A DNA stretch of 41,627 bases from contig JAFWII010000016.1 of the NCBI GenBank assembly GCA_017533785.1, forward strand, positions 1 to 41,627, read 5' to 3'. Source of the stretch: Erysipelotrichaceae bacterium. Its GTDB lineage: Bacteria; Bacillota_I; Bacilli_A; Erysipelotrichales; Erysipelotrichaceae. The notes beneath the pieces were generated by a model, which had not been told where the DNA came from, did no database searches, and was given only the letters and a program-made list of their open reading frames with translations. The stretch's first letter is position 1; every line of letters starts with the position of its first letter. Below, piece by piece: positions 1,556 through 41,006 of this stretch. A program made the translations under genes and the position numbers.

Positions 1556-2491
1556 TTATCGATACAAAAGGAATGCGGCGACTGTCTGCGCCAGCATCAG
1601 CAAAACTGCAAGCAAAACGCTGGGCGTCGTAAAGAAAAGACGCAGTGTATAGCCGAGATTCCGCTGACGGCTGACATAGACGCGTTTGAACTTGCGCACA
1701 AGCAGGATATAGACGCTGCACAGATACAGCATTCCTACCACGGCAAAGATCACCCAGTTGTATTTTTCCGGCAGGAACGTGCTTCCCAAAAACAGCGCGT
1801 TGACCGTGATATGGATACTGAGACCCGGCAGGATACTGTGATAACGCAGGGTCAGCAGCGAAAAACAGACAGAAAGCAGAAAAGCCGGGATCAGTTCCGG
1901 AAGCGAAGTGTGCATAAAAGCATAAAGCAGCGCAACAGTCAGGATCCCGAAACGGTTGCCGTAACGGCCAAGGTCACGCAGCAGAACACCGCGGAAGACA
2001 AATTCCTCGATCAGCGGTGTCACACCGACGAACAGGAAAACGAACAGCGGTTCGTGCAGGTAGTGCGTCGGCTGCACCATTCCGATCGGGGCAACGAACG
2101 CATCTGTAAAACCAAGCGGGTTCAAAACCATCGAGGAAACGAAGATCCCGATGAATACGACCGATGTGATCAGGATCGTATCGACCAGATATTCAGCAAA
2201 GGAAAAGCGGCTGGGACGGACGAAGTCCCGGTAGCGCACTCCGTTCACCTTTGCGTAGATAAAAAAGATCAGCATGGCGGAAAGCACATAGATCAGATAA
2301 AAGATGCCCAGCACGACCGGTCTTCCGTCGCTTCCGGACAAGGGAGAACCCGTGACCTGGAGATAACGCGTCAACAGTGCTGGGAAATAGGTCACGATCA
2401 GAATATAGATCACCAGCAAAAGGCCGGATGTAAAAAAACGGCGCCTGGCAGTTCCTGTGCTGATCCTTTTTCCTTTTTTACGATTGCTCAC
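1556..2491 (-). CDS. CPBP (CAAX/Abi) family intramembrane metalloprotease
   Basis: This multi-spanning membrane protein (~311 aa) has the three CPBP motifs: EEFVFRG (E162, E163, R167), the FMH segment (H194) and HxxxN (H227, N231). Together these form the glutamate-dependent intramembrane protease site. Family members process prenylated or peptide substrates or confer bacteriocin immunity; the substrate here is unknown. I chose GTG at 2491 because the longer reading frame would begin with an unsupported TTG at 2578 and add a non-membrane stretch. A TATAAT (2498-2503 on this strand) ends exactly 6 bases before that GTG, which would make the mRNA leaderless. No Shine-Dalgarno is visible. Confidence 0.78.
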   Translation of the reverse strand: MSNRKKGKRISTGTARRRFFTSGLLLVIYILIVTYFPALLTRYLQVTGSPLSGSDGRPVVLGIFYLIYVLSAMLIFFIYAKVNGVRYRDFVRPSRFSFAEYLVDTILITSVVFIGIFVSSMVLNPLGFTDAFVAPIGMVQPTHYLHEPLFVFLFVGVTPLIEEFVFRGVLLRDLGRYGNRFGILTVALLYAFMHTSLPELIPAFLLSVCFSLLTLRYHSILPGLSIHITVNALFLGSTFLPEKYNWVIFAVVGMLYLCSVYILLVRKFKRVYVSRQRNLGYTLRLFFTTPSVLLAVLLMLAQTVAAFLLYR

Positions 2492-2497
2492 TCTATA

Positions 2498-2503
2498 ATT
2501 ATA
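2498..2503 (-). promoter_or_regulatory. -10 box (TATAAT) 6 bases before GTG of the CPBP protease
   Basis: A perfect TATAAT on the minus strand is followed by six bases (tataga) and then GTG. Standard -10 geometry puts +1 on the start codon itself. No convincing -35 is seen. Confidence 0.5.
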
Positions 2504-2556
2504 TAGCCTTTTACACCTTTTTTGATTAGAATTCACTTTCAGTTCACATTGACTTC

Positions 2557-2562
2557 TATAAT
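2557..2562 (+). promoter_or_regulatory. Probable -10 of htrA promoter (TATAAT)
   Basis: A perfect TATAAT lies ~107 bases before the htrA ATG, with a weak TTCACT (2532-2537) upstream at 19-base spacing. It implies a ~100-nt 5' leader, which holds two hairpins (2593-2625 and 2638-2655). Confidence 0.4.
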
Positions 2563-2668
2563 AGTAATCGAAGCGCAAGAATATACCGCTATGCCCGCAC
2601 AGTATATCCTCGATGAATTGCGGGCTGGAAAGGAATTCAGACAGAACAGTGTCTGATCGGTTAAGAAT

Positions 2669-3751
2669 ATGAAGAAGTTTTTAAAAGTAGTCTTGGTTTT
2701 CCTGATCGCCTTTGTCGGCGGTCTGGCAGGTTCCTACAGTTATGACCGTTTTCTGTCCGGCAGCAGCAAACCGGCAGATGCGACCCAGAGCCTTGCGGCT
2801 ACCCAGGAGGTAAACTACGTCGTTAAGGAGAGCTCCGATCTGAAGACCGCCATCAAAAAAGCTTACGGTACGGTCGTCATGATCCAAACGACAATCGCCT
2901 CGAACAATCCGTTTTATCAGGATGCAGGCACAGCGCTAGGTTCCGGTGTCGTTATATCGGACGACGGTTATATCATCACCAATCACCACGTGATCAAAAA
3001 CGCCGAAAGCGTCACCGTAACGGCTGCGGACGGAACAGAATATCCGGCAAAAGTGATCGGCTCGGATGTAAAAACAGACCTGGCGGTCATCAAGGTCGAA
3101 GCCAGCGGGCTGCAGTACGCGGTCCTCGCCGATTCCGATCAGGTCGAGATCGGAGATGACGCGATCGCCATCGGCAACCCTCTGGGCGAAGGCATCAGCG
3201 TATCCAACGGAATCATCTCCGCAAAAGACAAGATGGTAACGATCTCCAAGCAGACGATGTACCTCTTCCAGACGAACGCAGCCATCAACGAAGGCAACAG
3301 CGGCGGAGGTCTCTTCGATATCAACGGGGATCTGATCGGTGTCGTCAATGCCAAGAGCAATTCCAATTTCGTTGTCGGCAGTGTCGAGGGACTCGGATTT
3401 GCCATTCCGAGCAACACCGTTGCCAAAGTCGCCAAAGAACTGATCGAGAACGGCTATGTCCGTGACCGGGCAACGATGGGCGTTATACTTTCGGACGTCG
3501 AGCAGGATACCGCACAGTACAAGAAAGGCGTTTATATCACCGGGATCGTCGAGGGCAGCGCCGCTGAAAAAGCAGAACTGCAGATGTATGACCGGATCGT
3601 TGAATTCGACGGCACGGAAGTCAGCTCCTACGCGGAGATCAACCGTCTGATCCTGCAGCACAGTATCGGTGACAAAGTTACAGTCAAAGTCGAGCGCGAC
3701 AACCGGGAGATCACTGTTACGATGACTCTTCAGGAAGCAACTCAGAACTGA
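2669..3751 (+). CDS. htrA: HtrA/DegP-like S1C serine protease with one PDZ domain, membrane-anchored
   Basis: This is a surface quality-control protease that degrades or refolds misfolded exported proteins. The 360 residues contain an N-terminal membrane anchor (about 4-25), a Ser/Thr-rich linker, a trypsin-like domain with catalytic H107 (NHHV), D137 (TDLAV) and S211 (GNSGGG), and a single C-terminal PDZ domain (about 262-350) with the carboxylate-binding region around KKGVYITGI. One PDZ is normal for Gram-positive HtrA. The ATG is clear, but the Shine-Dalgarno is weak (TTAAGAAT). The mRNA appears to start near 2569 and carry a ~100-nt structured leader. A strong terminator follows. Confidence 0.93.
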   Translation: MKKFLKVVLVFLIAFVGGLAGSYSYDRFLSGSSKPADATQSLAATQEVNYVVKESSDLKTAIKKAYGTVVMIQTTIASNNPFYQDAGTALGSGVVISDDGYIITNHHVIKNAESVTVTAADGTEYPAKVIGSDVKTDLAVIKVEASGLQYAVLADSDQVEIGDDAIAIGNPLGEGISVSNGIISAKDKMVTISKQTMYLFQTNAAINEGNSGGGLFDINGDLIGVVNAKSNSNFVVGSVEGLGFAIPSNTVAKVAKELIENGYVRDRATMGVILSDVEQDTAQYKKGVYITGIVEGSAAEKAELQMYDRIVEFDGTEVSSYAEINRLILQHSIGDKVTVKVERDNREITVTMTLQEATQN

Positions 3752-3758
3752 TCAAAAT

Positions 3759-3796
3759 AAAGCGCCAGCTCCGCGTTCCGGAGCCGCGCTTTTTCT
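3759..3796 (+). terminator. Rho-independent terminator after htrA
   Basis: Stem GCTCCG/CGGAGC is extended by GCGC pairing on both sides and followed by a run of Ts (3790-3794 and on). It sits 8 bases after the htrA stop. Confidence 0.85.
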
Positions 3797-3805
3797 TTTG
3801 CGCAC

Positions 3806-3835
3806 AAAAAAAGAACCGGCGGACCGGTTCTTTTT
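3806..3835 (-). terminator. Terminator of the ankyrin/EF-G operon (symmetrical)
   Basis: Stem AAGAACCGG / CCGGTTCTT with loop CGGA is flanked by A-tract and T-tract, so it works in both directions. It lies directly after the stop of the EF-G-like gene on the minus strand and backs up the htrA terminator on the plus strand. Confidence 0.85.
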
Positions 3836-3839
3836 CGTA

Positions 3840-5915: not shown

Positions 5916-5929
5916 ATGTTCGTATCCTC

Positions 5930-8585: not shown

Positions 8586-9230
8586 CTAGAATCCGAACGG
8601 GAAATGCGGACAGCGTGAGCAGAAAGTCATTTCCTCCTGCTTCACGGGATGTTTGAAGGTCAGTTCACTCGACCATAAGGCGATCTGCTGACCCGGTTTT
8701 GCATCTTTATTATACCGCTGATCACCATACAGCGGATGATTTCGCGACGCGAACTGGACGCGAATCTGATGCGAGCGGCCGGTCTTCAGCCGGATCCGCA
8801 CTTTCGCGAAACCTTCGCGCCTTTCCAGCACCTCATACTCCAGTTCCGAGTATTTGCCGTCCGGCGCGACTTTCACCATGTTGGTGCGGTGATCTTTCTT
8901 AAGGTTATCGATAAAAACGTCTCTGTCCCTGAGACCGTTGTCCGCAACGACTGCTTCATAGACCTTGTGGAAACGGTTCGTGCGGATCTCTTCACTGAGC
9001 CGGGAAGCGGCTTTGGAGGTGCGGGCAAAGACACATACACCCCCTACCGGACGGTCAAGCCGGTGGACCAGTCCGAGATAGACATCCCCGGGCTTTCCGT
9101 ATTTCTCCTTGATGTAGGCTTTCGCCTCATTCAGAAGATCCGGATCACCGGAAGAGTCTTCCTGCATCGGCTGGTTCGCCGGTTTTTCGACGACCAGCAG
9201 ATGGTTGTCTTCATAGAGAACGCGGATCAT
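8586..9230 (-). CDS. RluA-family pseudouridine synthase
   Basis: This 214-aa RNA-modifying enzyme converts uridine to pseudouridine in rRNA or tRNA. The catalytic motif HRLDRPVGGV (with the essential Asp) is present, followed by the KxY-type region (HKVYEAVV) and a LKTGRSHQIRVQ motif. There is no N-terminal S4 domain, so it is a short RluA-type protein starting directly with the catalytic fold (IRVLYEDNHLLVVEKPA). Its ATG overlaps the end of the methyltransferase gene by 20 bases, implying translational coupling. The target base cannot be told from sequence. Confidence 0.9.
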   Translation of the reverse strand: MIRVLYEDNHLLVVEKPANQPMQEDSSGDPDLLNEAKAYIKEKYGKPGDVYLGLVHRLDRPVGGVCVFARTSKAASRLSEEIRTNRFHKVYEAVVADNGLRDRDVFIDNLKKDHRTNMVKVAPDGKYSELEYEVLERREGFAKVRIRLKTGRSHQIRVQFASRNHPLYGDQRYNKDAKPGQQIALWSSELTFKHPVKQEEMTFCSRCPHFPFGF

Positions 9231-10095
9231 AACGGGTCACGATGCCGCAGGGCAAGGCAAACTGGCTGTTTTCGACCGGGATGCCGAGTTCCTGCGAATC
9301 CGCCTTTCCTTTGAAACCAGCGGAAGCCAGATGGCTGTTCAGGACATTCTTCATGACTTCGCAGGAATAGCCGGTCGTATAGGAACTGATGATGTAGAAA
9401 AGCGGATCATCAGATAAGAGTTTCAGCGTCTCTTCGATCAGCACGTTGATCTGGTCTTCGAAACGGAACAGCTCGTTGTTCGGACCGCGGCCGTAGCTCG
9501 GCGGATCCATCAGGATACCGTCGTACTTTCTTCCGCGTTTCTGTTCGCGGCGGACGAATTTCAGACAGTCGTCTACAATGAAACGGATCTTGTGGTCCTG
9601 CAGACCGGAGAGCTGCATGTTCTCCTTGGCCCACTGGACCATTCCCTTGGCGGCGTCGACGTGCACGACTTCCGCAGCTCCGGCAGCAGATGCAGCCATC
9701 GTAGCCGCGCCGGTGTAGGCAAAAAGATTCAGGATCTTTACTTCCCTGCCCTCTTCAGTGCCCTCTTTGACCTTGCGGGCGATGAAATCCCAGTTGGACG
9801 CCTGCTCGGGAAACAGGCCGGTATGCTTGAAATCGGTCGGCGAGACTTTGAAGACGAGCTCTTTATAGGCAACGTTCCACTGTTTCGGCAGCGTCCGGTT
9901 GTATTCCCAGTGACCGCCGCCCTGTGAGGAACGGTAATAGACAGCATCGCATTTATCCCACAGTTTCGGGAACTGTTTCGGCCAGATCGCCATCGGATCG
10001 GGACGGCGCAGAATGATCCCCGCCCAGCTCTCGAGCTTCTCCCTGTCTCCGCTGTCAAGGAGACGGTAGTCCTTAAAATCAGTGCTTGTAATCAT
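9211..10095 (-). CDS. Class I SAM-dependent methyltransferase (RlmI/COG1092-like, no PUA domain)
   Basis: This 294-aa protein carries a Rossmann methyltransferase domain: SAM motif I (ILNLFAYTGAATMAAS), acidic motif II (VVHVDAAKGM) and motif IV DPPSYGRG. The catalytic region resembles the RlmI-type rRNA cytosine methyltransferases but lacks their N-terminal PUA domain. The start is ATG at 10095; the longer open frame upstream runs antisense through pcrA and is not coding. A perfect TATAAT lies exactly 6 bases upstream, with no Shine-Dalgarno, so the transcript is probably leaderless. First gene of the minus-strand operon (9211 to 6812). Confidence 0.87.
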   Translation of the reverse strand: MITSTDFKDYRLLDSGDREKLESWAGIILRRPDPMAIWPKQFPKLWDKCDAVYYRSSQGGGHWEYNRTLPKQWNVAYKELVFKVSPTDFKHTGLFPEQASNWDFIARKVKEGTEEGREVKILNLFAYTGAATMAASAAGAAEVVHVDAAKGMVQWAKENMQLSGLQDHKIRFIVDDCLKFVRREQKRGRKYDGILMDPPSYGRGPNNELFRFEDQINVLIEETLKLLSDDPLFYIISSYTTGYSCEVMKNVLNSHLASAGFKGKADSQELGIPVENSQFALPCGIVTRYDPRSL

Positions 10096-10101
10096 GGAAA
10101 T

Positions 10102-10107
10102 ATTATA
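10102..10107 (-). promoter_or_regulatory. -10 box (TATAAT) 6 bases before methyltransferase ATG
   Basis: A perfect TATAAT on the minus strand, then atttcc, then ATG at 10095. The expected +1 is the A of the start codon. Confidence 0.6.
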
Positions 10108-10140
10108 CCATGTTTTGGAGAAACTCCGTCCCTCCTCGTG

Positions 10141-10146
10141 TATAAT
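10141..10146 (+). promoter_or_regulatory. -10 box (TATAAT) 9 bases before pcrA ATG
   Basis: A perfect TATAAT on the plus strand; the ATG is at 10156. The predicted transcript start is only 2-4 bases before the ATG. It is divergent from the methyltransferase promoter; the two start codons are ~60 bases apart. Confidence 0.55.
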
Positions 10147-10155
10147 GAAAAGGCT

Positions 10156-12306
10156 ATGGTAGTTTTTAAAGATCTGAATGAAAACCAGAAGAAGGCTGTC
10201 GTCGACGACAGCGACCATCTCCGCATCATCGCCGGCGCTGGCAGCGGCAAGACCCGTGTTCTTACCATGCGCATCGCCTACCTGATCGAGGAGAAAGATG
10301 TCCTGCCCTATCACATCCTGGCGATCACCTTCACCAATAAAGCCGCGAACGAAATGAAAAAGCGCATCCAGGAAATGCTGGAGGAACGCGGCACCGGCGC
10401 CTGGATCTCCACGATCCATTCTCTTTGCGTGCGTATCCTTTCGGAAGATATCGAAGCGCTCGGCTACCCGCGCAATTTCACGATCTGCGACGCGGATGAC
10501 CAGAAAACGATCCTGAAGGAAGCATACAAGGAATACGGCCTGGAAAAAGGCGTCTATCCCTACGGACAGATGCTCGACTACATCGCCGCCAACAAGAGCG
10601 CCAGGATCACGACCGAACAGGCGCGTGAACAGGCGCACGGCGACGAGCAGTTGCTGAACAAGGCAAAGGTCTATGACTATTACACAAAGAGACTACTTTC
10701 CGTTTACGGGCTCGATTTCGACGATCTGATCCTCTGGTCGATCCGGCTGTTTGAGGAATTCCCGTCGATCCTCAGCAAATGGTCCAAACGTTTCCACTAT
10801 GTGTTGGTCGATGAGTTCCAGGATATCGACCGCGATCAGTACCGTCTGATACGCTATCTCTGCAAGGAGCATGACCGGCTTTATGTCGTCGGCGATCCGG
10901 ACCAGACGATCTATACCTGGCGCGGCGCGGACGTCAACATCATCACCAATTTCGACCGCGATTTCCCGGATACCAAAACGATCATCCTGGACCGCAACTA
11001 CCGTTCCACTAACAATATCCTGAGCGGAGCCAACTCGCTGATCGCCAACAACCGCATGCGTGTCAAAAAAGACCTGTACTCGGAAAACGGCGACGGCGAG
11101 AAGATCCTGCACAAGAGCCTGGAGACCGAGGAAGGAGAAGCCTACTACATCGCCTCAGAGATCATCCAGATGCATAATCAGGGAAAACCCTATAACGATA
11201 TCGCGGTATTATACCGTTCGAACTACCTTTCCCGAACCGTGGAAAAAGTCTTCATCGAGAACCGTATCCCCTACGTGATCTACGGCGGCATCCGCTTCTA
11301 CGAGCGCGCCGAAGTCAAGGACATGCTGTCATATCTGCGCATGATCCTGTCCGGCGACGACCTGTCCTTCACGAGGATCATCAACGTTCCCAAACGCGGT
11401 ATCGGTACGACCACTCTGGACAATATCCGCCAGATCGCCTTTGAAAGCGAAATGACGATGTATGAAGTCGTCAAGAGCGGTCTGTATTCCAAGAACAGAC
11501 AGAAGTTCGAAAGTTTCGTGAATATGGTCGAAGAGTGGCGCCGCCAGCTCGGCAGTATCCCGCTCGACCAGCTCTTCCAGAATGTTCTGGACGAATCCGG
11601 ATACCGGCATATGCTGGAAAAAGACAATGAGACCGAGCGCCTTGAAAACATCAAGTCGCTGCTCGACGATATCGAGACCTACACGGAGACTTTCCCGGAC
11701 AGCGATCTGAACGACTATATGCAGATGATCGCCCTGTATACGGACAAGGCAGCTGAGAAGAACAGCGATTCCGTCAACCTGCTGACGATCCATTCCGCCA
11801 AAGGACTGGAATTCGACACCGTCTTCGTCATTGGCCTGTCGGAAGGCATCTTTCCGAGCGAGCGGACGATGAACGAGGGCATGAAGGGTCTTGAAGAGGA
11901 GCGCCGGCTTGCCTACGTTGCCTATACCCGGGCGAAGAAAAAGCTCTATCTGACCGAGAACCGCGCGTTCTCCTACGTCGTCCAGAGCGGCAAGCTGCCC
12001 AGCCGTTTCATCAAGGAGATCGATCCTGCCTTCGTCAAGGACCTCAACGAGCCGAAGCGGAAGAGTTTCTTCTTCGAAGGTTCCGAAGAGTTCGCCCCGA
12101 AGAAACCGGTCACGACCGAAAAGGCAAAAGCCGACAGCAAGTCTGCCCTGAAGAAAGGGGACCTCGTTGAACACGCCGTCTTCAAGAGCGGTGTCGTCAT
12201 CAGCATCGACAACAATATCGCCACGATCGCCTTCGCCTATCCCTACGGGGTCAAGAAGATCATGGCGACCCATCCCTCGATCCATAAAAAAGTAACCAAA
12301 GCATAA
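10156..12306 (+). CDS. pcrA: ATP-dependent DNA helicase PcrA/UvrD
   Basis: This superfamily 1A 3'-5' helicase acts in DNA repair, in removal of RecA filaments and in transcription-coupled repair. It is ~716 aa with Walker A AGAGSGKT (26-33), Walker B DEFQDID, motif III GDPDQTIYTWRGAD, motif V TIHSAKGLEFDTVFVIGL and motif VI RRLAYVAYTRAKKKLYL. A PcrA-type Tudor-like C-terminus that binds RNA polymerase follows (LKKGDLVEHAVFKSGVV). I use ATG 10156, since the family starts just before LNENQKKAV. A GTG at 10138 also opens the frame but would overlap the -10 box. Only AAAAGG, too close to the ATG, resembles a ribosome site. Confidence 0.95.
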   Translation: MVVFKDLNENQKKAVVDDSDHLRIIAGAGSGKTRVLTMRIAYLIEEKDVLPYHILAITFTNKAANEMKKRIQEMLEERGTGAWISTIHSLCVRILSEDIEALGYPRNFTICDADDQKTILKEAYKEYGLEKGVYPYGQMLDYIAANKSARITTEQAREQAHGDEQLLNKAKVYDYYTKRLLSVYGLDFDDLILWSIRLFEEFPSILSKWSKRFHYVLVDEFQDIDRDQYRLIRYLCKEHDRLYVVGDPDQTIYTWRGADVNIITNFDRDFPDTKTIILDRNYRSTNNILSGANSLIANNRMRVKKDLYSENGDGEKILHKSLETEEGEAYYIASEIIQMHNQGKPYNDIAVLYRSNYLSRTVEKVFIENRIPYVIYGGIRFYERAEVKDMLSYLRMILSGDDLSFTRIINVPKRGIGTTTLDNIRQIAFESEMTMYEVVKSGLYSKNRQKFESFVNMVEEWRRQLGSIPLDQLFQNVLDESGYRHMLEKDNETERLENIKSLLDDIETYTETFPDSDLNDYMQMIALYTDKAAEKNSDSVNLLTIHSAKGLEFDTVFVIGLSEGIFPSERTMNEGMKGLEEERRLAYVAYTRAKKKLYLTENRAFSYVVQSGKLPSRFIKEIDPAFVKDLNEPKRKSFFFEGSEEFAPKKPVTTEKAKADSKSALKKGDLVEHAVFKSGVVISIDNNIATIAFAYPYGVKKIMATHPSIHKKVTKA

Positions 12307-17193: not shown

Positions 17194-18054
17194 TTATCTT
17201 TCCATCAGCGCAAAGATCTCTTCCTTGCGCGCTTCGGCGTCGTCATAGCCGATCTTAAACAGTTTCTTCAGATCCTCCTTGTCGCCGCGCAGACGGGATA
17301 CCTTGACGGTCTGGCTGGGCAGCAGCCATACCGCCTTCTTGTCTTCGACTTCCTTTTTGATCAGACTGATCTGCTCGTTGTAATGGATATGACGGACTTT
17401 GTAGTCTTCGTAGATCTGTTTATGGCCCGGATAGGCCAGGCGCATGACTGTCGTCAGGAACCAGTTGGCGGGCTTGCGGACGTAATCCGCGGGCTTGGTC
17501 GTGATGATCAGGAGCTTGTCGTTCTGGTCGCGGACTGCCTCCTCGATCGGGATCATGTCAGTGATGCCGCCGTCGAGGTATTCCTTGCCGTCGACCGTGA
17601 CTTTATGGCCGATGACCGGAAGCGTGACCGAGCCTTTCAGCATCTGGAAATGGTCATCCATCTCGGTGATCGGGACATAGATCGTCTTGTCGATCGAAAG
17701 ATCGTAAAGACCGACTTTCGCCGGTTCCTTCCGGCAGTTCTCCTTCAGCTGCGCCATATCCATTTTCAGAACGTCTGGAATGACGTAGTCGAACAGATAG
17801 TTGTAGCCGACGATCTGCCCTTCGCGCAGCAGCGGAAGCAGACCGATCGTCTTCTTGTCGGCGATGTGGTTCGTCGACATTTCATAAAGATATTCCTTGT
17901 TTTTCAGAAGGAACGAACAGAGATAGATCGCACCCGTGGAAATGCCGTAATGATTATCAAAAGTGATCCCGTGCTCAAGCAGCCAGGTCAGAACTCCGGT
18001 GGTATAGGCGCCGCGCATGCCGCCGCCTTCCATAACTAGTGCAATCTTTTTCAT
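17194..18054 (-). CDS. Patatin-like phospholipase (YjjU/RssA type)
   Basis: This is a lipid acyl hydrolase of the patatin fold, 286 aa. The oxyanion hole GGGMRGAY lies near residue 10, the nucleophile S39 is in GISTG, and the catalytic Asp is in YLDGGITD; together they make the Ser-Asp dyad. There is no signal peptide, so it is cytoplasmic, possibly for membrane-lipid turnover. The start is ATG 18054; an in-frame TTG at 18057 lies next to it. TAGAAT (18063-18068 on this strand) ends 8 bases before the ATG, with TTGCAC 17 bases further upstream, and no Shine-Dalgarno is seen. It is divergent from the rhomboid gene. Confidence 0.9.
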   Translation of the reverse strand: MKKIALVMEGGGMRGAYTTGVLTWLLEHGITFDNHYGISTGAIYLCSFLLKNKEYLYEMSTNHIADKKTIGLLPLLREGQIVGYNYLFDYVIPDVLKMDMAQLKENCRKEPAKVGLYDLSIDKTIYVPITEMDDHFQMLKGSVTLPVIGHKVTVDGKEYLDGGITDMIPIEEAVRDQNDKLLIITTKPADYVRKPANWFLTTVMRLAYPGHKQIYEDYKVRHIHYNEQISLIKKEVEDKKAVWLLPSQTVKVSRLRGDKEDLKKLFKIGYDDAEARKEEIFALMER

Positions 18055-18062
18055 CAACTAAA

Positions 18063-18068
18063 ATTCTA
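18063..18068 (-). promoter_or_regulatory. -10 box (TAGAAT) of patatin gene, 8 bases before ATG
   Basis: TAGAAT on the minus strand has a TTGCAC -35 at 17-base spacing. The predicted start is within 1-2 bases of the ATG, or on the alternative TTG at 18057. Confidence 0.5.
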
Positions 18069-18089
18069 AACTTTATCTGACCTTTGTGC

Positions 18090-18095
18090 AATAAT
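18090..18095 (+). promoter_or_regulatory. Extended -10 (TGCAATAAT) 6 bases before rhomboid ATG
   Basis: TG-N-AATAAT is an extended -10. Six bases (acagtc) separate it from ATG 18102, so the transcript would be leaderless. Confidence 0.5.
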
Positions 18096-18101
18096 ACAGT
18101 C

Positions 18102-18653
18102 ATGAAGAAAAAGATCTACATCAACGCGCCGATCACTCTCGGCTTTGCCCTGATCGGCCTGATCGTGCTGGTTCTCGGTCTGGTCACCAAGGGCGCGATC
18201 ACCACCAGATATTTCATGACCTACCGCTCTTCCTGGAGCGACCCGCTGACCTATCTGCGGCTCGTCACCCATGTCTTCGGACACGCCAGCGTATCCCATT
18301 ATGCCGGCAACATGGTCTATATCCTGCTGCTGGGACCGATCCTGGAAGAGAAGTATCACAAGAACCTGCTCTACATCATCCTGCTCACGGCTGTCATCAC
18401 CGGACTGATCAACAACCTCTTCTTTACCGGCGGACTGCTGGGCAGCAGCGGCATCTGCTTCGCCTTCATCCTGCTGGCTTCGGTCACCGGCAAACAGAAA
18501 GGCATCCCGCTCACCCTGCTCCTCGTCGCGGTCTTCTGGATCGGAAACGAGATCTATACCGGCCTGACTGCCAATGACCAGATCTCCCAGCTGACCCACA
18601 TCATCGGCGGACTCTGCGGCGGCATGACGGGGGTATTCCTGAAAGACAACTGA
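18102..18653 (+). CDS. Rhomboid-family intramembrane serine protease
   Basis: This 183-aa membrane protein has about six hydrophobic segments. It has the rhomboid signature HASVSHYAGN (61-70), the nucleophile S116 in GSSG, and the catalytic H166 in LTHIIGG, so the Ser-His dyad is intact. It cleaves transmembrane segments of unknown substrates within the membrane. I chose ATG 18102; the frame is open to a TTG at 18084, but that lies inside the promoter. Extended -10 TGcAATAAT ends 6 bases before the ATG and no Shine-Dalgarno is visible. A strong terminator follows. Confidence 0.88.
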   Translation: MKKKIYINAPITLGFALIGLIVLVLGLVTKGAITTRYFMTYRSSWSDPLTYLRLVTHVFGHASVSHYAGNMVYILLLGPILEEKYHKNLLYIILLTAVITGLINNLFFTGGLLGSSGICFAFILLASVTGKQKGIPLTLLLVAVFWIGNEIYTGLTANDQISQLTHIIGGLCGGMTGVFLKDN

Positions 18654-21738: not shown

Positions 21739-23535
21739 ATGTTTTATCTGTTCACGCTGCTGTGGCTGTTCTCTTTCGGAGGACTGCTCACACTGCAGTT
21801 CCGCCGCCGCTTTGAGACTGTAATGCTGCCGGGGCTCTGCTCCGCTGTTTTCGTGCTGTATCTCTTTTCGTTCGCGGATCAGCTGCGAGCCGGTTTCTGG
21901 CTGCTCGTCTTTCTGGCAGTCCTCTTCTGGATCCTGCTGCTGATCAGCTTCCTGAAAAAGGATCCGTCCGTGCAGGAGTTCAGAAAGAATTATTTCACGC
22001 CCGGAGCGCTGGTCTTCCTTTTGGCGGTGCTCTGGTTCTTCCTGCTGTACCGCAATCAGGGTTTCGCGAACTGCGACGAATTCATGCACTGGGGACCGAT
22101 GGTCCTGCAGACCCTCAGAAACAACGGTTTCTACCTGACCGGTGACATTCTGCGGGTGCATAACGATTATCCGCCGTTCATAACCCTTCTGCGGGTGCTT
22201 TTCTGCGGTTTCAACGGTTTCGTTTATCGTGAGCCGATCCTCTATATCGCACAGTCGATCTTCTATATCAGCTGTTTTCTGCCGCTGATGAAGAAGCTGG
22301 AATTCTCCGGAAAAGAAGATCTGCTGAAGAGCCTGTTCATCCTGCTCAGCGTGCTGCTGGGCGGACTGTGGATCTCCAAGACGGTGACTGCGCAGGAATG
22401 GGCGCTCCTGTACAGTTCCATCTATGCCGACTGGCCGCTGGCCGCGCTTGCCGGAGCCGCTCTCTGTTACGTCCATACCGAAAAGAACGACGCTTTCTTT
22501 ATCGCTTCACTTACGCTCATCCTGTCCGCGGTCCTGCTTACCAAGCAGATCGGGATCTGTTTCTATATGCTGATCGTCTTCTATGCAGTCGTCAGGACGG
22601 CTCTCGAAAAAGACCGGAAGGCGTTCATCCGGCTGATCCCTGCTGTTTTCCTTCCGCTGCTGGCGTTCCTCTCCTGGTCGCTGCTGCTGAAGATCCGGGA
22701 GATCGGCGGACAGTTCGTCGTCGGCAATATGTCCTTTTCCGAAGCGATCCGTGAATCGCTCGTCGGCGGCAGTTACGCCAACGGGATCGCGCGTCACTAC
22801 CTGCGTGAACTGCTGCTCCGCCCCATGACCACGCATCCGCTGCCGCTCCCCTATTTTCCGGTCGCGCTGCTGCTGGCTGCCGTCATGCTGGTGTGCTATC
22901 GAAAAAAAGGCATCCTGCTTGCCTTCACTTATCTGATGGGGTCTGCCGCTTATGCCTTTACCATCCTGCTGCTGTACATGACATCTTTCGGTTCGGATGA
23001 AGCGGTCGTGCTCGCTTCCTTTGACCGTTATATGATCACCTACCTTTTCTTCGGCGTGATCCTCGTCCTCTGCTGCATCATCTCCTTCTTCCTGGAGACG
23101 GAAAGCAGACTGCTGTATCTGCTCCCTCTGGTCCTGCTGCTGTTTATTGAGACTGCTTCGCTCAACACGCTGCTTCCGAAAACGAAACTGCAGCAGAATA
23201 CCCTGCGTGTGCTCCTGATCGATCCCTACGATGATTTCCGGAGCGACCGCGAGGAGCTCAGCGGTCTGAAGTTCGAATACATCGAGTCCGGCCTGAGCAG
23301 GAAATCAGATCCGGATGTCTTCGTGTCCGAACTGGGTGAAAACGATCTCGTCTACATCCAAAAATATGATGACGATTTCTATTTCAACTGCTGGCCGCGG
23401 CAGACCTATGAAACCGAGCCATACTACCAGACGCTGTATTCGATCGGAAAAGAAGAAAACGGCTTCCGATTGGAGCCGATGAGTTTCTCTTTCTACGATT
23501 ATGTGAATCTGTATTACCAGATCCCGAAGAAATGA
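21739..23535 (+). CDS. Polytopic membrane protein, GT-C glycosyltransferase-like
   Basis: This 598-aa protein has roughly a dozen hydrophobic segments and a soluble C-terminal domain (from about residue 490). After the third or fourth segment comes NCDEFMHWGPM (D113, E114), and a little later NDYPPF (142-146). Paired acidic residues in the first large loop plus a YPP element are features of GT-C enzymes that use lipid-linked sugars. I therefore infer a glycosyltransferase-type role at the cell surface, with moderate confidence; no close named family is recognised. The open frame runs further upstream antisense to the aminopeptidase, but the true start is ATG 21739. The stop lies within its own terminator. 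Confidence 0.75.
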   Translation: MFYLFTLLWLFSFGGLLTLQFRRRFETVMLPGLCSAVFVLYLFSFADQLRAGFWLLVFLAVLFWILLLISFLKKDPSVQEFRKNYFTPGALVFLLAVLWFFLLYRNQGFANCDEFMHWGPMVLQTLRNNGFYLTGDILRVHNDYPPFITLLRVLFCGFNGFVYREPILYIAQSIFYISCFLPLMKKLEFSGKEDLLKSLFILLSVLLGGLWISKTVTAQEWALLYSSIYADWPLAALAGAALCYVHTEKNDAFFIASLTLILSAVLLTKQIGICFYMLIVFYAVVRTALEKDRKAFIRLIPAVFLPLLAFLSWSLLLKIREIGGQFVVGNMSFSEAIRESLVGGSYANGIARHYLRELLLRPMTTHPLPLPYFPVALLLAAVMLVCYRKKGILLAFTYLMGSAAYAFTILLLYMTSFGSDEAVVLASFDRYMITYLFFGVILVLCCIISFFLETESRLLYLLPLVLLLFIETASLNTLLPKTKLQQNTLRVLLIDPYDDFRSDREELSGLKFEYIESGLSRKSDPDVFVSELGENDLVYIQKYDDDFYFNCWPRQTYETEPYYQTLYSIGKEENGFRLEPMSFSFYDYVNLYYQIPKK

Positions 23536-25539: not shown

Positions 25540-26649
25540 TCAAATATGTGTGAGTATGCATACCGCTTCAAGATGATCGGTAAAACCGAACTGATCGAAA
25601 AGTTCGATCTCACTGAAACGGTAATTCTTTTCCAGTTCGCGCAGGTCGCGTTTCAGCGTTTCCGGATTGCACGAGATATAGGCGATCTTTTTCGGACCCT
25701 GGCGATTCAGCTGATGCAGCAGTTTCTGATCCAGTCCGGAACGCGGAGGATCGACGACAACGACGTCAAAATCGCTGTCCAGACGCACATTTCCGGCATC
25801 GCCGCAGCGGAAGCGGATGTTCTTCATCCCGTTCAGCTCAGCGTTGCGGACAGCATCTTTCACCGCCCGCGGATTGATCTCGATCCCGGTGACTTCCTTC
25901 ACGTGCGGTGCCAGGAAATGGGAGATCGTACCGATCCCGCAATACAGATCAAGCGCCTTCTCATTTCCCTGCAGTTTCAGTCCATCAATCGCTTCCCGGT
26001 AGATCATTTCCGCGATCTTCGGATTCACCTGATAGAATGCAGATGCTGATATCGCAAAACGATATTCTCCCAGACGGTCGATCAGATAGCCTTTTCCGTA
26101 AAGCTGGCGCGTCTCCCCTTCGATCACGATGCTGGTGGAGCGTTTCTGCACATACTGATCCACCCCGATGATCTCCGGATGCAGCTGCCGCAGCTCTTTT
26201 ATGATGTCCCTGGAACCATACAGTTCTCTGGTCGCGGTCACAAGGCACATAAGCACTTTGTCCTCTGTCGAAACTCTGTACAGGACGTGGCGCAGACAGC
26301 CCTGACCGGTCTTTTCGTTATAGGCGGTCAGATGATGCTCATTCAGGATCTGCAGAAGGTCCCGGTTGATGCGGACGGCGGTTTCCGACTGGATCAGACA
26401 GTCTTCGATCTCCAGCACGCGTGTGCTGCCGGACGGATGGAAACCCGCGATCAGCCGGCCGTTGCGCATGGCAAAATGATAGATGACCTTATGGCGGTAG
26501 CGGAACGGTTCGGGATTCTCGAAACACTTTCCGACTCTGTACGGCTTCAGCATCGCTTTCGTCTTGGCAAATTTCTCTGCAGCGGCTTTCCTCTCGTCTT
26601 CCGGCGGATAGGAACAGGAGCCGCATTGTTTGTAGTACGGACAGATCAT
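25540..26649 (-). CDS. TrmA/RlmCD-type RNA uridine-C5 methyltransferase
   Basis: This methyltransferase places a methyl group on C5 of a uridine in 23S rRNA or tRNA, using SAM. The 369 residues start with the four-Cys [4Fe-4S] set (C3, C9, C12, C84). SAM motif I (ALDLYCGIGTISHFLAP), VVVDPPRSGLD and the catalytic-Cys motif YISCNPETLKRDL follow. The N-terminal TRAM domain found in many RlmD/RlmCD proteins is absent. TACAAT ends exactly 6 bases before the ATG with GAGGG between, so transcription may start on the ATG itself. Target site not deducible from sequence. Confidence 0.9.
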   Translation of the reverse strand: MICPYYKQCGSCSYPPEDERKAAAEKFAKTKAMLKPYRVGKCFENPEPFRYRHKVIYHFAMRNGRLIAGFHPSGSTRVLEIEDCLIQSETAVRINRDLLQILNEHHLTAYNEKTGQGCLRHVLYRVSTEDKVLMCLVTATRELYGSRDIIKELRQLHPEIIGVDQYVQKRSTSIVIEGETRQLYGKGYLIDRLGEYRFAISASAFYQVNPKIAEMIYREAIDGLKLQGNEKALDLYCGIGTISHFLAPHVKEVTGIEINPRAVKDAVRNAELNGMKNIRFRCGDAGNVRLDSDFDVVVVDPPRSGLDQKLLHQLNRQGPKKIAYISCNPETLKRDLRELEKNYRFSEIELFDQFGFTDHLEAVCILTHI

Positions 26650-26655: not shown

Positions 26656-26661
26656 ATTGTA
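26656..26661 (-). promoter_or_regulatory. -10 box (TACAAT) 6 bases before RNA methyltransferase ATG
   Basis: TACAAT on the minus strand, then gagggt, then ATG 26649. This is the leaderless spacing. Confidence 0.5.
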
Positions 26662-32619: not shown

Positions 32620-32624
32620 TTTTA

Positions 32625-33093: not shown

Positions 33094-33099
33094 TAAGAT
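33094..33099 (+). promoter_or_regulatory. Extended -10 (TGgTAAGAT) 6 bases before ATG 33106
   Basis: TG-N-TAAGAT, then gaaagt, then ATG. No Shine-Dalgarno is visible; leaderless geometry. Confidence 0.5.
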
Positions 33100-33105: not shown

Positions 33106-33732
33106 ATGGACCGGGTTGAAAAAAGGACTGCGCTCTGGGGATGGATCCTGATCGCAGCGGAGATCTACAAACAGATCCGCCTCGTGACGGTATACGGAAG
33201 CTATGTCTGGTGGCATTTCCCCTGGCAGCTGTGCTCGCTGCCGATGTATCTTGCGGCAGCACTGCCGTTTATAAAAAACACAGACCGGAAAGACACGGTA
33301 TTCGCCTTTCTGGCGGGTTTCGGGCTGCTCGGCGGGATCGCGGTCTTTTTCGATCAGAGCGGCCTGCATTACGCCCGGCCGGAGCTCACCGCCATCTCCT
33401 ATCTCTGGCATATCTCGATGGTCTTTTTCGGTCTTTACGCTTACCGGGGCATACGCGGAAACAAAAATACAGGCTTCCGCAAAGCCTGTATCCTCTATTT
33501 CTGCTGCTGTATTCTGGCAGTCATCCTGAATCTCGTTTTCGCCCGTTTCGGCGAGATCGATCTGTTTTATATCAATCCGCTCACCGCGATGTCGCAGATC
33601 GTATTCCGCGAACTGGTCCCGCTGATCGGGAATCCGCTGACGATCCTCCTCTATATCCTGTCGACCGTTCTGGGCGCCGCGGCGCTGTTTTTCCTGAACG
33701 GAAAACTACAGAATAAAATTCACGATGACTAG
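33106..33732 (+). CDS. YwaF-like (TIGR02206-type) integral membrane protein
   Basis: This 208-aa membrane protein has about six spans. It has the HFPWQLCSLPMYLAA segment near residue 40, conserved in YwaF-type proteins, and a later pair ISYLWHISMVFFGLY. The function of the family is unknown. The ATG sits 6 bases after an extended -10 (TGgTAAGAT), so the mRNA is probably leaderless. Its 3' end overlaps the end of azlD, on the other strand, by 27 bases, with no terminator hairpin seen in the overlap. Confidence 0.8.
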   Translation: MDRVEKRTALWGWILIAAEIYKQIRLVTVYGSYVWWHFPWQLCSLPMYLAAALPFIKNTDRKDTVFAFLAGFGLLGGIAVFFDQSGLHYARPELTAISYLWHISMVFFGLYAYRGIRGNKNTGFRKACILYFCCCILAVILNLVFARFGEIDLFYINPLTAMSQIVFRELVPLIGNPLTILLYILSTVLGAAALFFLNGKLQNKIHDD

Positions 33733-36628: not shown

Positions 36629-36658
36629 TTGCAAAAGCCTTTCGCTTACTCTTATACT
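36629..36658 (+). promoter_or_regulatory. Promoter of the cyclophilin gene
   Basis: -35 TTGCAA (36629-36634), 18-base spacer, -10 TATACT (36653-36658). A leader of ~24 nt with GTGAGGACA follows, so this is a conventional leadered gene. Confidence 0.7.
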
Positions 36659-36688
36659 TTTTCTAGTAGAAAGTGAGGACACGCAATT

Positions 36689-37180
36689 ATGGCAAATCCG
36701 AAGATCCGTATCAAAATGAAAAACGGCGGCGAGATGGTCGCGGAACTCTATCCGGAGATCGCTCCCGTCACCGTCGAAAACTTCTTAAAACTCGTCAACC
36801 AGGGCTTCTACAACGGCCTGACCTTCCACCGCGTCATCCCGGGATTCATGATCCAGGGCGGCTGCCCCCGCGGCACCGGCACCGGCGGACCGGGCTGGAC
36901 CATCAAGGGTGAATTCCGCGCCAACGGTTTCCGCAACGACCTGAAGCACACTGCCGGCGTCCTTTCCATGGCCAGAGCCTATGACCCGAACTCCGCAGGC
37001 AGCCAGTTCTTCATCATGCACCACGACGCGCCGCATCTTGACGGACAGTACGCCGCCTTCGGCAAACTGCTCAGCGGTATGGAGACCGTCAACGAGATCG
37101 CCCTCGTCAAAAGAGACCGGAGCGACAAGCCGCTCGAACCGCAGGTCATCGAAAGCATGACCGTCATCGAGGAAGAATAA
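36689..37180 (+). CDS. Cyclophilin-type peptidyl-prolyl cis-trans isomerase
   Basis: This cytoplasmic protein-folding isomerase (163 aa) is of the short bacterial cyclophilin type. The active-site string [14 protein letters not shown] (45-58, with R48, F53, M54 and Q56) is intact, as are [16 protein letters not shown] and the [10 protein letters not shown] loop. No signal peptide. GTGAGGACACGCAATT leads to the ATG. A hairpin terminator sits just after the stop. Confidence 0.95.
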
Positions 37181-37192
37181 CCGCGATACAAA

Positions 37193-37217
37193 AGAGAAAG
37201 CACGTCTTTCTCTTTTT
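37193..37217 (+). terminator. Terminator between cyclophilin and nucleoside hydrolase
   Basis: Stem AGAGAAAG / CTTTCTCT with loop CACGT, followed by TTTT. The next gene starts 14 bases later, so some read-through may feed it. Confidence 0.75.
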
Positions 37218-37230
37218 GAAAGGAATGAAT

Positions 37231-39563: not shown

Positions 39564-39583
39564 AATTCTCACCTTCCATCTCA

Positions 39584-39589
39584 AGTATA
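39584..39589 (-). promoter_or_regulatory. Probable -10 (TATACT) of glgA
   Basis: TATACT on the minus strand, 20 bases before the ATG. The -35 is poor (T-rich). Confidence 0.4.
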
Positions 39590-39663
39590 CCAAGTCAGCA
39601 CCCTGAAAAAACATCATTTTTCCGCTTTATTTTTTCAGAACCTTAATGTAATATATAGAAGAC

Positions 39664-39737
39664 GCCGCCATAGTATAGTGGCAATACGCATCCATGGTAA
39701 GGATGAATCCCGTGTCCGATTCACGGTGGCGGCACCA
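39664..39737 (+). tRNA. tRNA-Thr (anticodon GGT), unusual T-loop
   Basis: 74 bases with encoded CCA. Acceptor GCCGCCA/TGGCGGC, D stem GTAT/ATAC, anticodon stem CATCC/GGATG with loop ATGGTAA (anticodon GGU). T-stem CCGTG/CACGG encloses TCCGATT, so position 55 is C (39716) where nearly all elongator tRNAs have U (pseudouridine). All other elements look functional. Confidence 0.92.
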
Positions 39738-39747
39738 TCGCATTCTC

Positions 39748-39773
39748 CCCTCTGCACAGAGGGTTTTTATTTT
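39748..39773 (+). terminator. Terminator after tRNA-Thr
   Basis: Stem CCCTCT / AGAGGG with loop GCAC and a T-rich tail (TTTTTATTTTT). Confidence 0.88.
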
Positions 39774-39806
39774 TCCGGGGAGCGCTCCCTTCACGGAATG
39801 TTGTAG

Positions 39807-39812
39807 TACAAT
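39807..39812 (+). promoter_or_regulatory. -10 box (TACAAT) 6 bases before RlmI-like ATG
   Basis: TACAAT, then ggtctt, then ATG 39819. No Shine-Dalgarno; leaderless spacing. Confidence 0.5.
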
Positions 39813-39818
39813 GGTCTT

Positions 39819-41006
39819 ATGAACAAAGTGATTCTGAAACGATACGAAGGAAGGACGGTCCGCGACGGCGGCCTGTGGATCTACGACAACGAGATCGAAC
39901 GGACCGAAGGCAGCTGGCAGAACGGCGATATCGTGGAAGTCTTTTCTTACAAGGACGATTTTATCGGCCGCGGCTATATCAACGATCACTCGAAGATCCG
40001 CATCCGTCTGCTGACACGGGATCCGCAGGAAGAGATCGGCAGAGACCTCTTCAAAAAGCGCATCCGCGAAGCCTGGGACTACCGTAAGAGCGTCGTGGAA
40101 ACGGACTGCTGCCGGGTGGTCTTCTCCGATTCCGACAGGCTGCCGGGCCTGATCATCGACAAATTCGAGGATGTTCTCGTCTTCGAGATCGATACTCTGG
40201 GCATGGACGTCCGCAAGGACCTGCTGGTCGAAGTGACGAAAGAGATCTTCGCCGAAGACGGGATCCGCATCCGCGGCATCTACGAGCGCAGCGACGCTAA
40301 AGTCCGCACCCTGGAAGGTCTTGAACGTGTCAAAGGCTTCCTGAGCGAACCCTTCCCTACCGTCATCCCGGTAAAGGAGAACGGCGTCCGTCTGGAAATC
40401 AACGTCGCCGAGGGACAGAAGACCGGCTACTTCCTTGACCAGAAATACAATCACCTGGCCGTGCGACGTCTGTGTGCCGGCAAGACCGTGCTCGACTGCT
40501 GCACCCATACCGGCGGCTTTGCCCTGAGCGCCGCCGTGACCGCGAAACAGGTCACCGGCATCGACGCCTCCGAACTGGCAATCGAACAGGCAAGAGCCAA
40601 CAGCGCGCTCAACGGCTTTACCAATACCGTATTCGAAGTCGCCGACGTATTCGACTATCTGACCGGAAAGCAGCAGGAAGGCGCGCGTTATGATGTCATC
40701 ATTCTGGATCCGCCGGCTTTCACCAAATCGAAGAATTCCGTGAAGAATGCCGCCAAAGGCTACAAGGAGATCAATTACCGGGCAATGAAGCTGCTGAATC
40801 CGGGCGGCTTCCTGATCAGCTGCTCCTGCAGCGAATACATGGAGCGGGAGCATTTCCTGAACATCCTGCTCAGCGCCGCGAACGACGCCCACAAACGGCT
40901 GCGTCTGGTGGAGAACCGGGCCCAGGCGCCCGATCATCCGGTCATGCTGGGAAACAATGTGTCGGATTATCTGAAATGTGTGATTCTGCAGGTCAATGAC
41001 CGCTAG
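39819..41006 (+). CDS. RlmI-like class I rRNA methyltransferase with PUA domain
   Basis: This 395-aa protein has an N-terminal PUA RNA-binding domain (1-70, GGLWIYDNEIERTEG...GDIVEV), a linker domain and a Rossmann methyltransferase: SAM motif I VLDCCTHTGGFALSAA, motif II VTGIDASELAIEQA and motif IV ILDPPAFTKSK. A late SCSCSEYM supplies the RlmI-type Cys. E. coli RlmI makes m5C1962 in 23S rRNA; the same target here is an inference from architecture. The shorter paralogue at 9211-10095 lacks the PUA part. TACAAT is placed 6 bases before the ATG. Confidence 0.9.
   Translation: MNKVILKRYEGRTVRDGGLWIYDNEIERTEGSWQNGDIVEVFSYKDDFIGRGYINDHSKIRIRLLTRDPQEEIGRDLFKKRIREAWDYRKSVVETDCCRVVFSDSDRLPGLIIDKFEDVLVFEIDTLGMDVRKDLLVEVTKEIFAEDGIRIRGIYERSDAKVRTLEGLERVKGFLSEPFPTVIPVKENGVRLEINVAEGQKTGYFLDQKYNHLAVRRLCAGKTVLDCCTHTGGFALSAAVTAKQVTGIDASELAIEQARANSALNGFTNTVFEVADVFDYLTGKQQEGARYDVIILDPPAFTKSKNSVKNAAKGYKEINYRAMKLLNPGGFLISCSCSEYMEREHFLNILLSAANDAHKRLRLVENRAQAPDHPVMLGNNVSDYLKCVILQVNDR

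What the first reader, a model, noticed from the sequence alone, without database searches (positions are those of the whole stretch)
2489..39821. Recurrent leaderless-mRNA signature: -10 box 6-9 bases before the start codon at nine genes
Seen directly: a TATAAT-like hexamer ends 6 bases before the start codon at 2491(-), 10095(-), 18102(+), 26649(-), 33106(+) and 39819(+), 7 bases at 21739(+), 8 at 18054(-) and 9 at 10156(+). None has a normally spaced Shine-Dalgarno. With standard promoter geometry the first transcribed base is the A/G of the start codon or within 1-3 bases of it. Other genes in the same window (302-1522, 20364, 32625, 36689, 41042) have ordinary leaders with good Shine-Dalgarno sites, so two classes of start coexist. 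Leaderless mRNAs are common in Actinobacteria and Deinococcus but are thought to be rare in Bacillota, so a frequent use here would be notable.
Basis: partly seen in the sequence, partly recalled or inferred. Interest (0 to 1): 0.72.

Follow-up and report, generated by a model that had tools for sequence, protein, structure and literature searches.

The report
Leaderless genes in Erysipelotrichaceae gut bacteria
In this genus of Erysipelotrichaceae bacteria, an estimated one gene in ten has a promoter-like box ending six to nine bases before its start codon and no ribosome-binding sequence, so its messenger RNA likely begins at or next to the start codon, a state that the same genes appear to have gained or lost several times among related species.

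Summary
All nine start codons have a -10-like hexamer ending 6-9 bases upstream and no normally spaced Shine-Dalgarno (SD). Each is kept, within 1 nt, in at least one close relative, and coding-type substitution begins right after the start codon. In 772 kb (43%) of the genome, -10 hexamers peak at gap 6 (32 of 631 starts; 1 to 3 at gaps 3, 4, 5, 8). The whole assembly has 62 TATAAT-N6-ATG against 12 TATAAT-N12-ATG. Gap-6 starts carry initiator marks (pyrimidine at -1 in 63 of 67), and TGn precedes the box in 34 of 90 gap-6/7 genes. The net estimate is 8-12% of genes in the genus. In 247 genomes of the class the excess is significant in 8 of 23 of this family, 6 of 26 of one other, and 0 of 198 elsewhere. 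Orthologues of two of the genes occur either with a short gap and no SD or with a long gap and an SD, with at least six switches each on a tree. Transcription starts were not mapped. Leaderless mRNA is a known kind, about 9% in streptococci, so 'rare in Bacillota' is too strong. I found no report for this family in the papers searched.

The parts
2498..2503 (-). -10 hexamer TATAAT, 6 nt before GTG start of CPBP/Rce1-like protease gene (1556-2491)
   Evidence: same box, gap 6 and GTG in L005
1556..2491 (-). predicted leaderless gene, CPBP intramembrane protease family
   Evidence: Pfam PF02517
10102..10107 (-). -10 hexamer TATAAT with TGn extension, 6 nt before ATG
   Evidence: among 70 orthologue rows the nearest box is at gap 6 in 21, gap 7 in 2, gap 9 in 1
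9211..10095 (-). predicted leaderless gene, class I SAM-dependent methyltransferase (rRNA-methyltransferase-like)
   Evidence: PF10672; NCBIfam hits all below cut-off; codons 2-20 differ from L005 only at third positions (0,0,6)
10141..10146 (+). -10 hexamer TATAAT, 9 nt before ATG of pcrA (predicted 3-nt leader)
   Evidence: gap 9 kept in L002 and L005
10156..12306 (+). predicted near-leaderless gene, PcrA/UvrD helicase
   Evidence: PF00580/PF13361; TIGR01073 below its cut-off
18063..18068 (-). -10 hexamer TAGAAT, 8 nt before ATG
   Evidence: gap 7 in L005/L179
17194..18054 (-). predicted near-leaderless gene, patatin-like phospholipase family
   Evidence: PF01734
18090..18095 (+). -10 hexamer AATAAT preceded by TGn, 6 nt before ATG
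   Evidence: TTTGTGCAATAAT and gap 6 kept in L005, L006, L007
18102..18653 (+). predicted leaderless gene, rhomboid family
   Evidence: PF01694
21726..21731 (+). -10 hexamer TATAAT, 7 nt before ATG
   Evidence: gap 7 in L005, L179 and L181
21739..23535 (+). predicted leaderless gene, 598 aa, no Pfam family
   Evidence: one weak NCBIfam hit far below cut-off
26656..26661 (-). -10 hexamer TACAAT, 6 nt before ATG
   Evidence: TACAAT, TACAAT and TAAGAT at gap 6 in three genus mates
25540..26649 (-). predicted leaderless gene, RlmD/TrmA-type RNA (uracil-5) methyltransferase
   Evidence: PF05958; TIGR00479 above cut-off
33094..33099 (+). weak -10 hexamer TAAGAT preceded by TGn, 6 nt before ATG
   Evidence: weak TAATAT at gap 6 in L181; no aligned start in L180
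33106..33732 (+). predicted leaderless gene, TMEM164-like membrane protein
   Evidence: PF14808
39807..39812 (+). -10 hexamer TACAAT, 6 nt before ATG
   Evidence: TAGAAT at gap 6 in two genus mates, none in the third
39819..41006 (+). predicted leaderless gene, PUA + RlmI-type methyltransferase
   Evidence: PF17785/PF10672; NCBIfam hits below cut-off

Best explanation
These nine genes have a sigma-70-type -10-like box ending 6 to 9 bases before the start codon and no normally spaced Shine-Dalgarno sequence, so RNA polymerase likely starts transcription at or within about three bases of the start codon and ribosomes are predicted to initiate on these (near-)leaderless mRNAs directly. The box, often extended by TGn and with little sign of a -35, is predicted to place the transcription start at the seventh base after the hexamer: the A of the ATG when the gap is 6, or one to three bases before it when the gap is 7-9. 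Start selection would then rest on the 5'-terminal start codon (probably by 70S ribosomes or 30S subunits with initiator tRNA, as described in other bacteria; inferred) instead of SD pairing, which most other genes of the same genome use. An estimated 8-12% of genes in this genus are of this class by sequence. In relatives the same gene and promoter can instead carry a leader with an SD, so leaders appear to be gained or lost as a unit during evolution (inferred from a tree).
For: (1) Sharp gap-6 peak: 32 of 631 starts, with 1-3 at gaps 3-5 and 8; starts were chosen by coding potential only. Replicated in stretches of three genus mates (gap 6: 13 of 196) and in 13 sister-clade loci (19 of 128). 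(2) Whole-genome counts for gap 6 vs 12: 62/12 here; 51/11, 65/12 and 47/11 in genus mates. (3) SD >=4 nt at spacing 4-10: 2 of 49 gap-6/7 genes vs 415 of 592 others. (4) Initiator bases: pyrimidine at -1 in 63 of 67 gap-6 genes vs 498 of 873 others; purine at the 7th base after the box in 12 of 13 gap-8 and 15 of 16 gap-9 genes, but only 13 of 23 gap-7 genes. (5) TGn in 34 of 90, about 5 expected. (6) Methyltransferase orthologues, 70 rows: short gap 24, SD (spacing <=10) in 0; gap >=14 in 43, SD in 40 (43 at spacing <=12, where 3 of 23 short-gap rows also match); pcrA 0 of 14 vs 49 of 51. (7) Each of the nine sites keeps a -10-like box at the same gap (within 1 nt) in at least one close relative; codons 2-20 show 29, 22 and 78 changes at positions 1, 2, 3. 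(8) In-frame downstream starts with an SD are no commoner than in SD genes: 3 of 87 vs 18 of 439. (9) Three genomes of a neighbouring family as negative control: gap-6/7 in 1 of 74, 0 of 73, 1 of 34 starts.
Against: No transcription start was mapped and no translation measured. The 16S 3' end string was not found in this assembly or its three genus mates, so an intact anti-SD is inferred from SD use and from four family members that have it. The gap-7 class lacks a clear initiator signature. 33106 has a weak box. The orthologue of 39819 in genus mate G002 (53% identity) has no box at gap 6. Patatin orthologues are short-gap in only 4 of 30 rows. pcrA at gaps 9-10 would have a 3-4 nt leader, not leaderless in the strict sense. 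Under a looser window (spacing 3-12), 18 of 58 gap-6-9 genes hold some >=4-nt SD-like string. The assembly is 88% complete. The excess is not significant in 233 of 247 genomes of the class.
Confidence: 0.9

Rival explanations
1. The -10-like boxes are real promoters, but the true start codons lie further downstream behind an SD, so the mRNAs have ordinary leaders and the starts are mis-assigned.
For: A -10 box right before an ORF is what a short leader with a downstream start would also show; SD-preceded in-frame internal starts exist in 3 of 87 gap-6/7 genes.
Against: That rate is like the one in SD genes, 18 of 439. Third-position excess begins at codon 2 in the nine genes taken together (29, 22, 78), though not at 33106 alone (12, 6, 10). 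Methyltransferase orthologues align at or within a few residues of residue 1.
Confidence: 0.04
2. The TATAAT-like string is not a promoter but an AU-rich translation element; transcription starts further upstream and the leader lacks an SD.
For: AU-rich starts are known in SD-poor bacteria such as Bacteroidetes (recalled; PMC6847099 on SD-poor Bacteroidetes seen as start of abstract in the listing). Full-length S1 is not found.
Against: An AU-rich element needs neither a single-base spacing (32 at gap 6, 1 at gap 5), nor TGn, nor a -1 pyrimidine. In methyltransferase orthologues the box lies 14 or more nt upstream when an SD is present.
Confidence: 0.03
3. Chance in AT-rich upstream sequence.
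For: The absolute number per genome is modest, and TATAAT-N-ATG strings are common in AT-rich relatives.
Against: GC is 52% in the sample. Whole-genome 62 vs 12, binomial p 1.4e-9; positions conserved in relatives.
Confidence: 0.01

Closest known systems
TA-led (leaderless) genes of the 2011 survey of 953 bacterial genomes (PMC3160421, passages)
   Same: TANNNT/TATAAT core about 12 bp before the start codon and no SD; TG before the box, as in Lactococcus
   Different: There Bacillota cases concentrate in Lactobacillales and Mycoplasma (56 of 209 genomes, mean 4.2%, range 2.4-16.6%). The word part 'erysipel' does not occur in its main text.
Leaderless mRNAs of streptococci (PMC6431027, passages)
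   Same: Bacillota; 8.6-9% of mRNAs; 81% of the S. pyogenes set shared with S. agalactiae
   Different: There the starts were mapped by RNA-seq. Here they are predicted, and a gene-by-gene switch between short-gap and SD-led states is visible.
-10 region adjacent to ORF in Deinococcus-Thermus (PMC12340547, passages)
   Same: -10 motif directly before the ORF that can serve as promoter on its own (a -35 raises output), leaderless mRNA
   Different: About 30% of ORFs and all analysed species of the phylum there; here about 8-12% in one genus, with SD initiation dominant and a TATAAT box, often with TGn, instead of TANNNT.
Leaderless transcripts of mouse gut species by Cappable-seq (PMC4782308, passages)
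   Same: gut bacteria, YR initiator, 10-15% of mapped starts at start codons in two species
   Different: Akkermansia and Bifidobacterium there; none of the four species analysed is of this family.

Membership tests
Leaderless gene (TA-led class of PMC3160421) | -10 hexamer with its first base about 12 bp before the start codon | tested here: met
   gap-6 peak = first base at -12; 32 of 631 starts, gaps 4, 5 and 8 have 1, 1 and 3
Leaderless gene (TA-led class of PMC3160421) | no SD sequence | tested here: met
   SD in 2 of 49 vs 415 of 592
Leaderless gene (TA-led class of PMC3160421) | transcript 5' end at the start codon | not testable with these tools
   no RNA data; indirect evidence only: -1 pyrimidine in 63 of 67
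Leaderless gene (TA-led class of PMC3160421) | protein made from the 5'-terminal start codon | not testable with these tools
   indirect evidence only: coding-type substitution from codon 2
Sigma-70 extended -10 promoter | TGn before TATAAT | tested here: met
   34 of 90 gap-6/7 genes, about 5 expected; met for the class, not by every member
Sigma-70 promoter with -35 | TTGACA-like hexamer 16-18 bp upstream | tested here: inconclusive
   4-5 of 6 letters in 20 of 90 vs about 12 in shuffles
Deinococcus-type -10-adjacent programme | about 30% of ORFs, in all members of the clade | tested here: not met
   net 8-12% in this genus, about 3% in the 65 other loci outside the clade; 8 of 23 family genomes significant

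The most novel reading that the evidence does not exclude
Erysipelotrichaceae hold a lineage-specific, evolvable leaderless programme in which the same promoter is kept while the leader is switched on or off as a unit. Genes sit either at leader length 0-4 without SD or at about 8 and more with SD, with almost nothing between, and some -10 boxes are built from the stop codon of the gene before. The family would be a natural series of gains and losses of leaders.
Probability: 0.6. Interest if true: 0.6.

Novelty: new member of a known kind. Interest (0 to 1): 0.5.

Why it matters
It adds a common gut and rumen family to the lineages with frequent predicted leaderless genes. It supplies orthologue sets in which one gene is either short-gap without SD or SD-led. 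That makes a standing question testable: how and why genes move between two modes of translation initiation. It is also a warning for annotation: my own finder, which used coding potential alone, missed three of the nine starts, and finders that reward SD sites may misplace such starts too.

Tried and rejected
S1 as cause: no match over the rpsA cut-off in any of 25 genomes (the cut-off is strict, only 2 of 14 controls pass it; G029 has a long partial match with a stop inside). Family f2 lacks S1 by that test too but shows no leaderless signal, so missing S1 does not explain it. Changed anti-SD: the 16S 3' string is absent from all four genus assemblies (probably unassembled) and present in 9 of 25 genomes, four of them in the same family, so nothing to report. 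Functional bias: Pfam on 51 leaderless proteins (46 from the finder plus five window genes added by hand) and on 45 of 46 sampled SD genes (one truncated gene left out); RNA-modification enzymes stand out by eye in the first set, but only 25 of 85 and 25 of 97 families are shown, so I claim no enrichment. A coupling test between pcrA and methyltransferase states gave four independent pairs on supported branches, no result. The reversed-pattern control of the genome search was set aside for the gap-12 control, because a reversed motif is not a matched background. A first spacing profile without gene calls, on 374 kb, showed only a modest hump at gaps 6-9 (TATAAT-ATG 8, 8, 4, 7 against 0-6 at the other gaps up to 30); the sharper result came with gene starts.
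Full report
What was claimed.

Host. The window is contig C3 of a 1.80-Mb, 46-contig assembly, 88% complete. The closest named relatives of its pcrA are unclassified Erysipelotrichaceae metagenome assemblies (90% and 89% identity, L002 and L005); many of the 80 record titles name sheep, goat, cattle or deer gut samples. GC is 53% in the window.

The nine sites. All nine read as described: TATAAT at 2491, 10095, 21739 and 10156; TACAAT at 26649 and 39819; AATAAT at 18102; TAGAAT at 18054; TAAGAT at 33106. Pfam gives families for eight of the nine proteins; the 598-aa protein at 21739 has none. Three are methyltransferases of families that act on rRNA or tRNA, by similarity; only the RlmD-type one passes an NCBIfam cut-off.

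Conservation. Each of the nine sites keeps a -10-like hexamer at the same gap, within 1 nt, in at least one close relative: 2491, 10095, 10156, 18054, 18102 and 21739 in L005; 26649 in three genus mates; 39819 in two (TAGAAT) but not in G002, whose 53%-identical orthologue has no such box; 33106 in L181 only, both boxes weak, with no aligned start in L180. L005 and G001 are likely one genome (equal contig length). In codons 2-20 of the nine genes, changes fall 29, 22 and 78 on codon positions 1, 2, 3 (33106 alone shows 12, 6, 10), so translation from these start codons is under coding constraint overall.

Genome-wide test. I wrote a gene finder that picks starts by coding potential alone (it finds six of the nine starts and misses 2491, 10095 and 18054). 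On 772,154 bases (43%) it gives 631 starts. A hexamer with >=5/6 letters of TATAAT (A2 and T6 fixed) ends k bases before the start, for k = 0 to 12, in 5,6,3,2,1,1,32,14,3,10,0,3,1; from k = 17 to 40 the counts are 1-12. Operon-first-like genes have 25, 10, 3 and 9 of 337 at gaps 6-9 (14% uncorrected; the six positions at gaps 10-15 give 14 hits, i.e. about 9 by chance at four positions); internal genes 7, 4, 0 and 1 of 294. A second run with composition-matched training gives 641 starts and 49 at gap 6-7, 5.3 expected from gaps 10-15. The same peak appears in 266 kb of three genus mates (14 of 196 vs 1.3), in 13 loci of the sister clade (24 of 128 vs 1.3), and weakly in the other 65 loci (30 of 757 vs 13.7). 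With a weight matrix, candidate-start tolerance and decoy gaps, at threshold 4 the counts are 72 of 675 (decoys 13-21) here, 28 of 208 (2-6) in genus mates, 38 of 138 (2-6) in the sister-clade loci and 51 of 807 (25-32) in the rest; thresholds 5-7 give fewer of both. The net at threshold 4 is about 8%, 12%, 25% and 3%. The sister-clade loci all surround pcrA and so share genes, and the matrix was trained on the same pool.

SD exclusion and promoter anatomy. SD of >=4 nt at spacing 4-10: 2 of 49 gap-6/7 genes vs 415 of 592 others; with spacing 3-12 it is 18 of 58 gap-6-9 genes vs 212 of 291 other operon-first genes. In the pooled 990 starts, gap-6 genes (67) have a pyrimidine at -1 in 63, others in 498 of 873. 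Gap-8 and gap-9 genes have a purine at the seventh base after the box in 12 of 13 and 15 of 16; gap-7 genes only in 13 of 23. TGn precedes the box in 34 of 90 gap-6/7 genes (about 5 expected); -35 resemblance is slight (4-5 letters in 20 of 90, about 12 in shuffles). This fits a start site at the seventh base after the box: leader 0 at gap 6 and up to 3 nt at gap 9.

Switching in orthologues. For the methyltransferase at 10095 I could place starts in 69 of 80 loci plus the window. The nearest box lies at gap 6 (21), 7 (2) or 9 (1, where another ATG sits at gap 6), or at 14 or more (43), with none at 8 or 10-13. Two rows have no box by the rule (L004 has TAAGAT at gap 6, L076 has an SD), and one (L029) has a box at gap 0 besides one at 21. 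SD at spacing <=10: 0 of 24 short-gap, 40 of 43 long-gap, Fisher p 3e-15; with spacing up to 12 it is 3 of 23 and 43 of 43. For pcrA (79 loci plus the window): 0 of 14 vs 49 of 51; 15 have no box within 40 nt. pcrA is less clean: nine rows have their box at gaps 8-10 without SD, and L064 and L035 have boxes at 11 and 13 with an SD. Rhomboid orthologues: 5 of 6 rows at gap 6; patatin: 4 of 30 rows short-gap, 9 long-gap all with SD, 17 without a box. RlmI orthologues outside the genus have no box at gap 6 by eye. TGn is frequent in both states (methyltransferase 15 of 24 and 39 of 42; pcrA 6 of 14 and 26 of 37), so the promoter seems retained while the leader changes. On an 81-row PcrA tree (quick method) the states need at least six changes for each of the two genes (L004 set by eye; gain and loss cannot be told apart). 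All 15 rows with data in the 16-row clade that holds the window are short-gap at the methyltransferase.

Distribution. Whole-genome counts of TATAATN6ATG against TATAATN12ATG: 62/12 here and 51/11, 65/12, 47/11 in genus mates; near parity in most of family f2. In 247 genomes drawn from the class (completeness 80% or more), a one-sided binomial test at 1% false discovery gives 14 genomes: 8 of 23 in this family, 6 of 26 in family f8, 0 of 198 in the other 20 families; this genome has the lowest p-value. The test is weaker in AT-rich genomes, so absence there is not shown. Gene-based histograms on stretches agree: G131 and G241 of this family 10 of 82 and 11 of 74 at gap 6-7, G231 of f8 5 of 63, f2 negative controls 1 of 74, 0 of 73 and 1 of 34; G262 of f8 with only 14 starts had none.

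Machinery. No match over the rpsA (S1) cut-off in 25 genomes; the anti-SD string is found in 9 of 25 and in none of the four genus assemblies. SD use is the majority mode here, so two modes coexist.

Against what is known. The 2011 survey found leaderless genes in 56 of 209 Firmicutes genomes, mean 4.2%, in Lactobacillales and Mycoplasma above all (PMC3160421, passages). Streptococci have 8.6-9% by RNA-seq (PMC6431027, passages). In Mycoplasma gallisepticum nine transcripts appear leaderless (PMC4245973, passages). Deinococcus-Thermus has about 30% -10-adjacent ORFs (PMC12340547, passages). A gene-finder survey cited in PMC9581028 (passages) predicts leaderless transcription in 21.6% of bacterial species; that survey itself was not held, so this family may already be counted there. 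Searches for leaderless with Erysipelotrich (5 papers: passages of two, listing of three), with Erysipelothrix (1, listing), and for Erysipelotrichaceae with transcription start sites and promoter (2, listing) gave no report of leaderless genes in this family.

Verdict. The observation and the leaderless reading stand, on sequence evidence of several kinds. What is not shown is the RNA 5' end and its translation. It is a new lineage for a known kind of gene, with an unusually clear record of two start states in orthologues.

Noticed in passing
G000 and relatives, e.g. L101:9766(+), L102:6369(+), L120:2724(+): In 13 of 90 gap-6/7 genes the box lies at the very end of the preceding same-strand gene; by position it overlaps that gene's stop codon in 11 of the 13 (counted by hand), e.g. 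TATAATAA: an internal promoter made partly of a stop codon.
   Followed up: partly
G231, G205, G262, G172, G217, G250 (family f8 of the same class): A second, unnamed family shows the gap-6 excess (6 of 26 genomes significant); in stretches of G231, GC 61%, 5 of 63 starts, in G262 0 of 14.
   Followed up: partly
G019 and G259: Two genomes of the same family have zero TATAATN6ATG and zero TATAATN12ATG; cause unknown, perhaps high GC or a changed -10 box.
   Followed up: no
window 18054-18102: Two divergent genes (patatin-like, rhomboid) 47 bp apart are both predicted (near-)leaderless, with overlapping promoters; TTTGTGCAATAAT before the rhomboid gene is kept in L005-L007.
   Followed up: partly
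window 10096-10155: A 60-bp divergent spacer between the methyltransferase gene and pcrA holds two promoters that both are predicted to leave no leader or nearly none.
   Followed up: yes
window 3-260(+): C-terminal piece of an integrase-core transposase (PF13333) at the contig end.
   Followed up: no
window 10156-12306: PcrA-like helicase scores below the NCBIfam pcrA cut-off (714.5 vs 911.2 bits), a divergent member.
   Followed up: no
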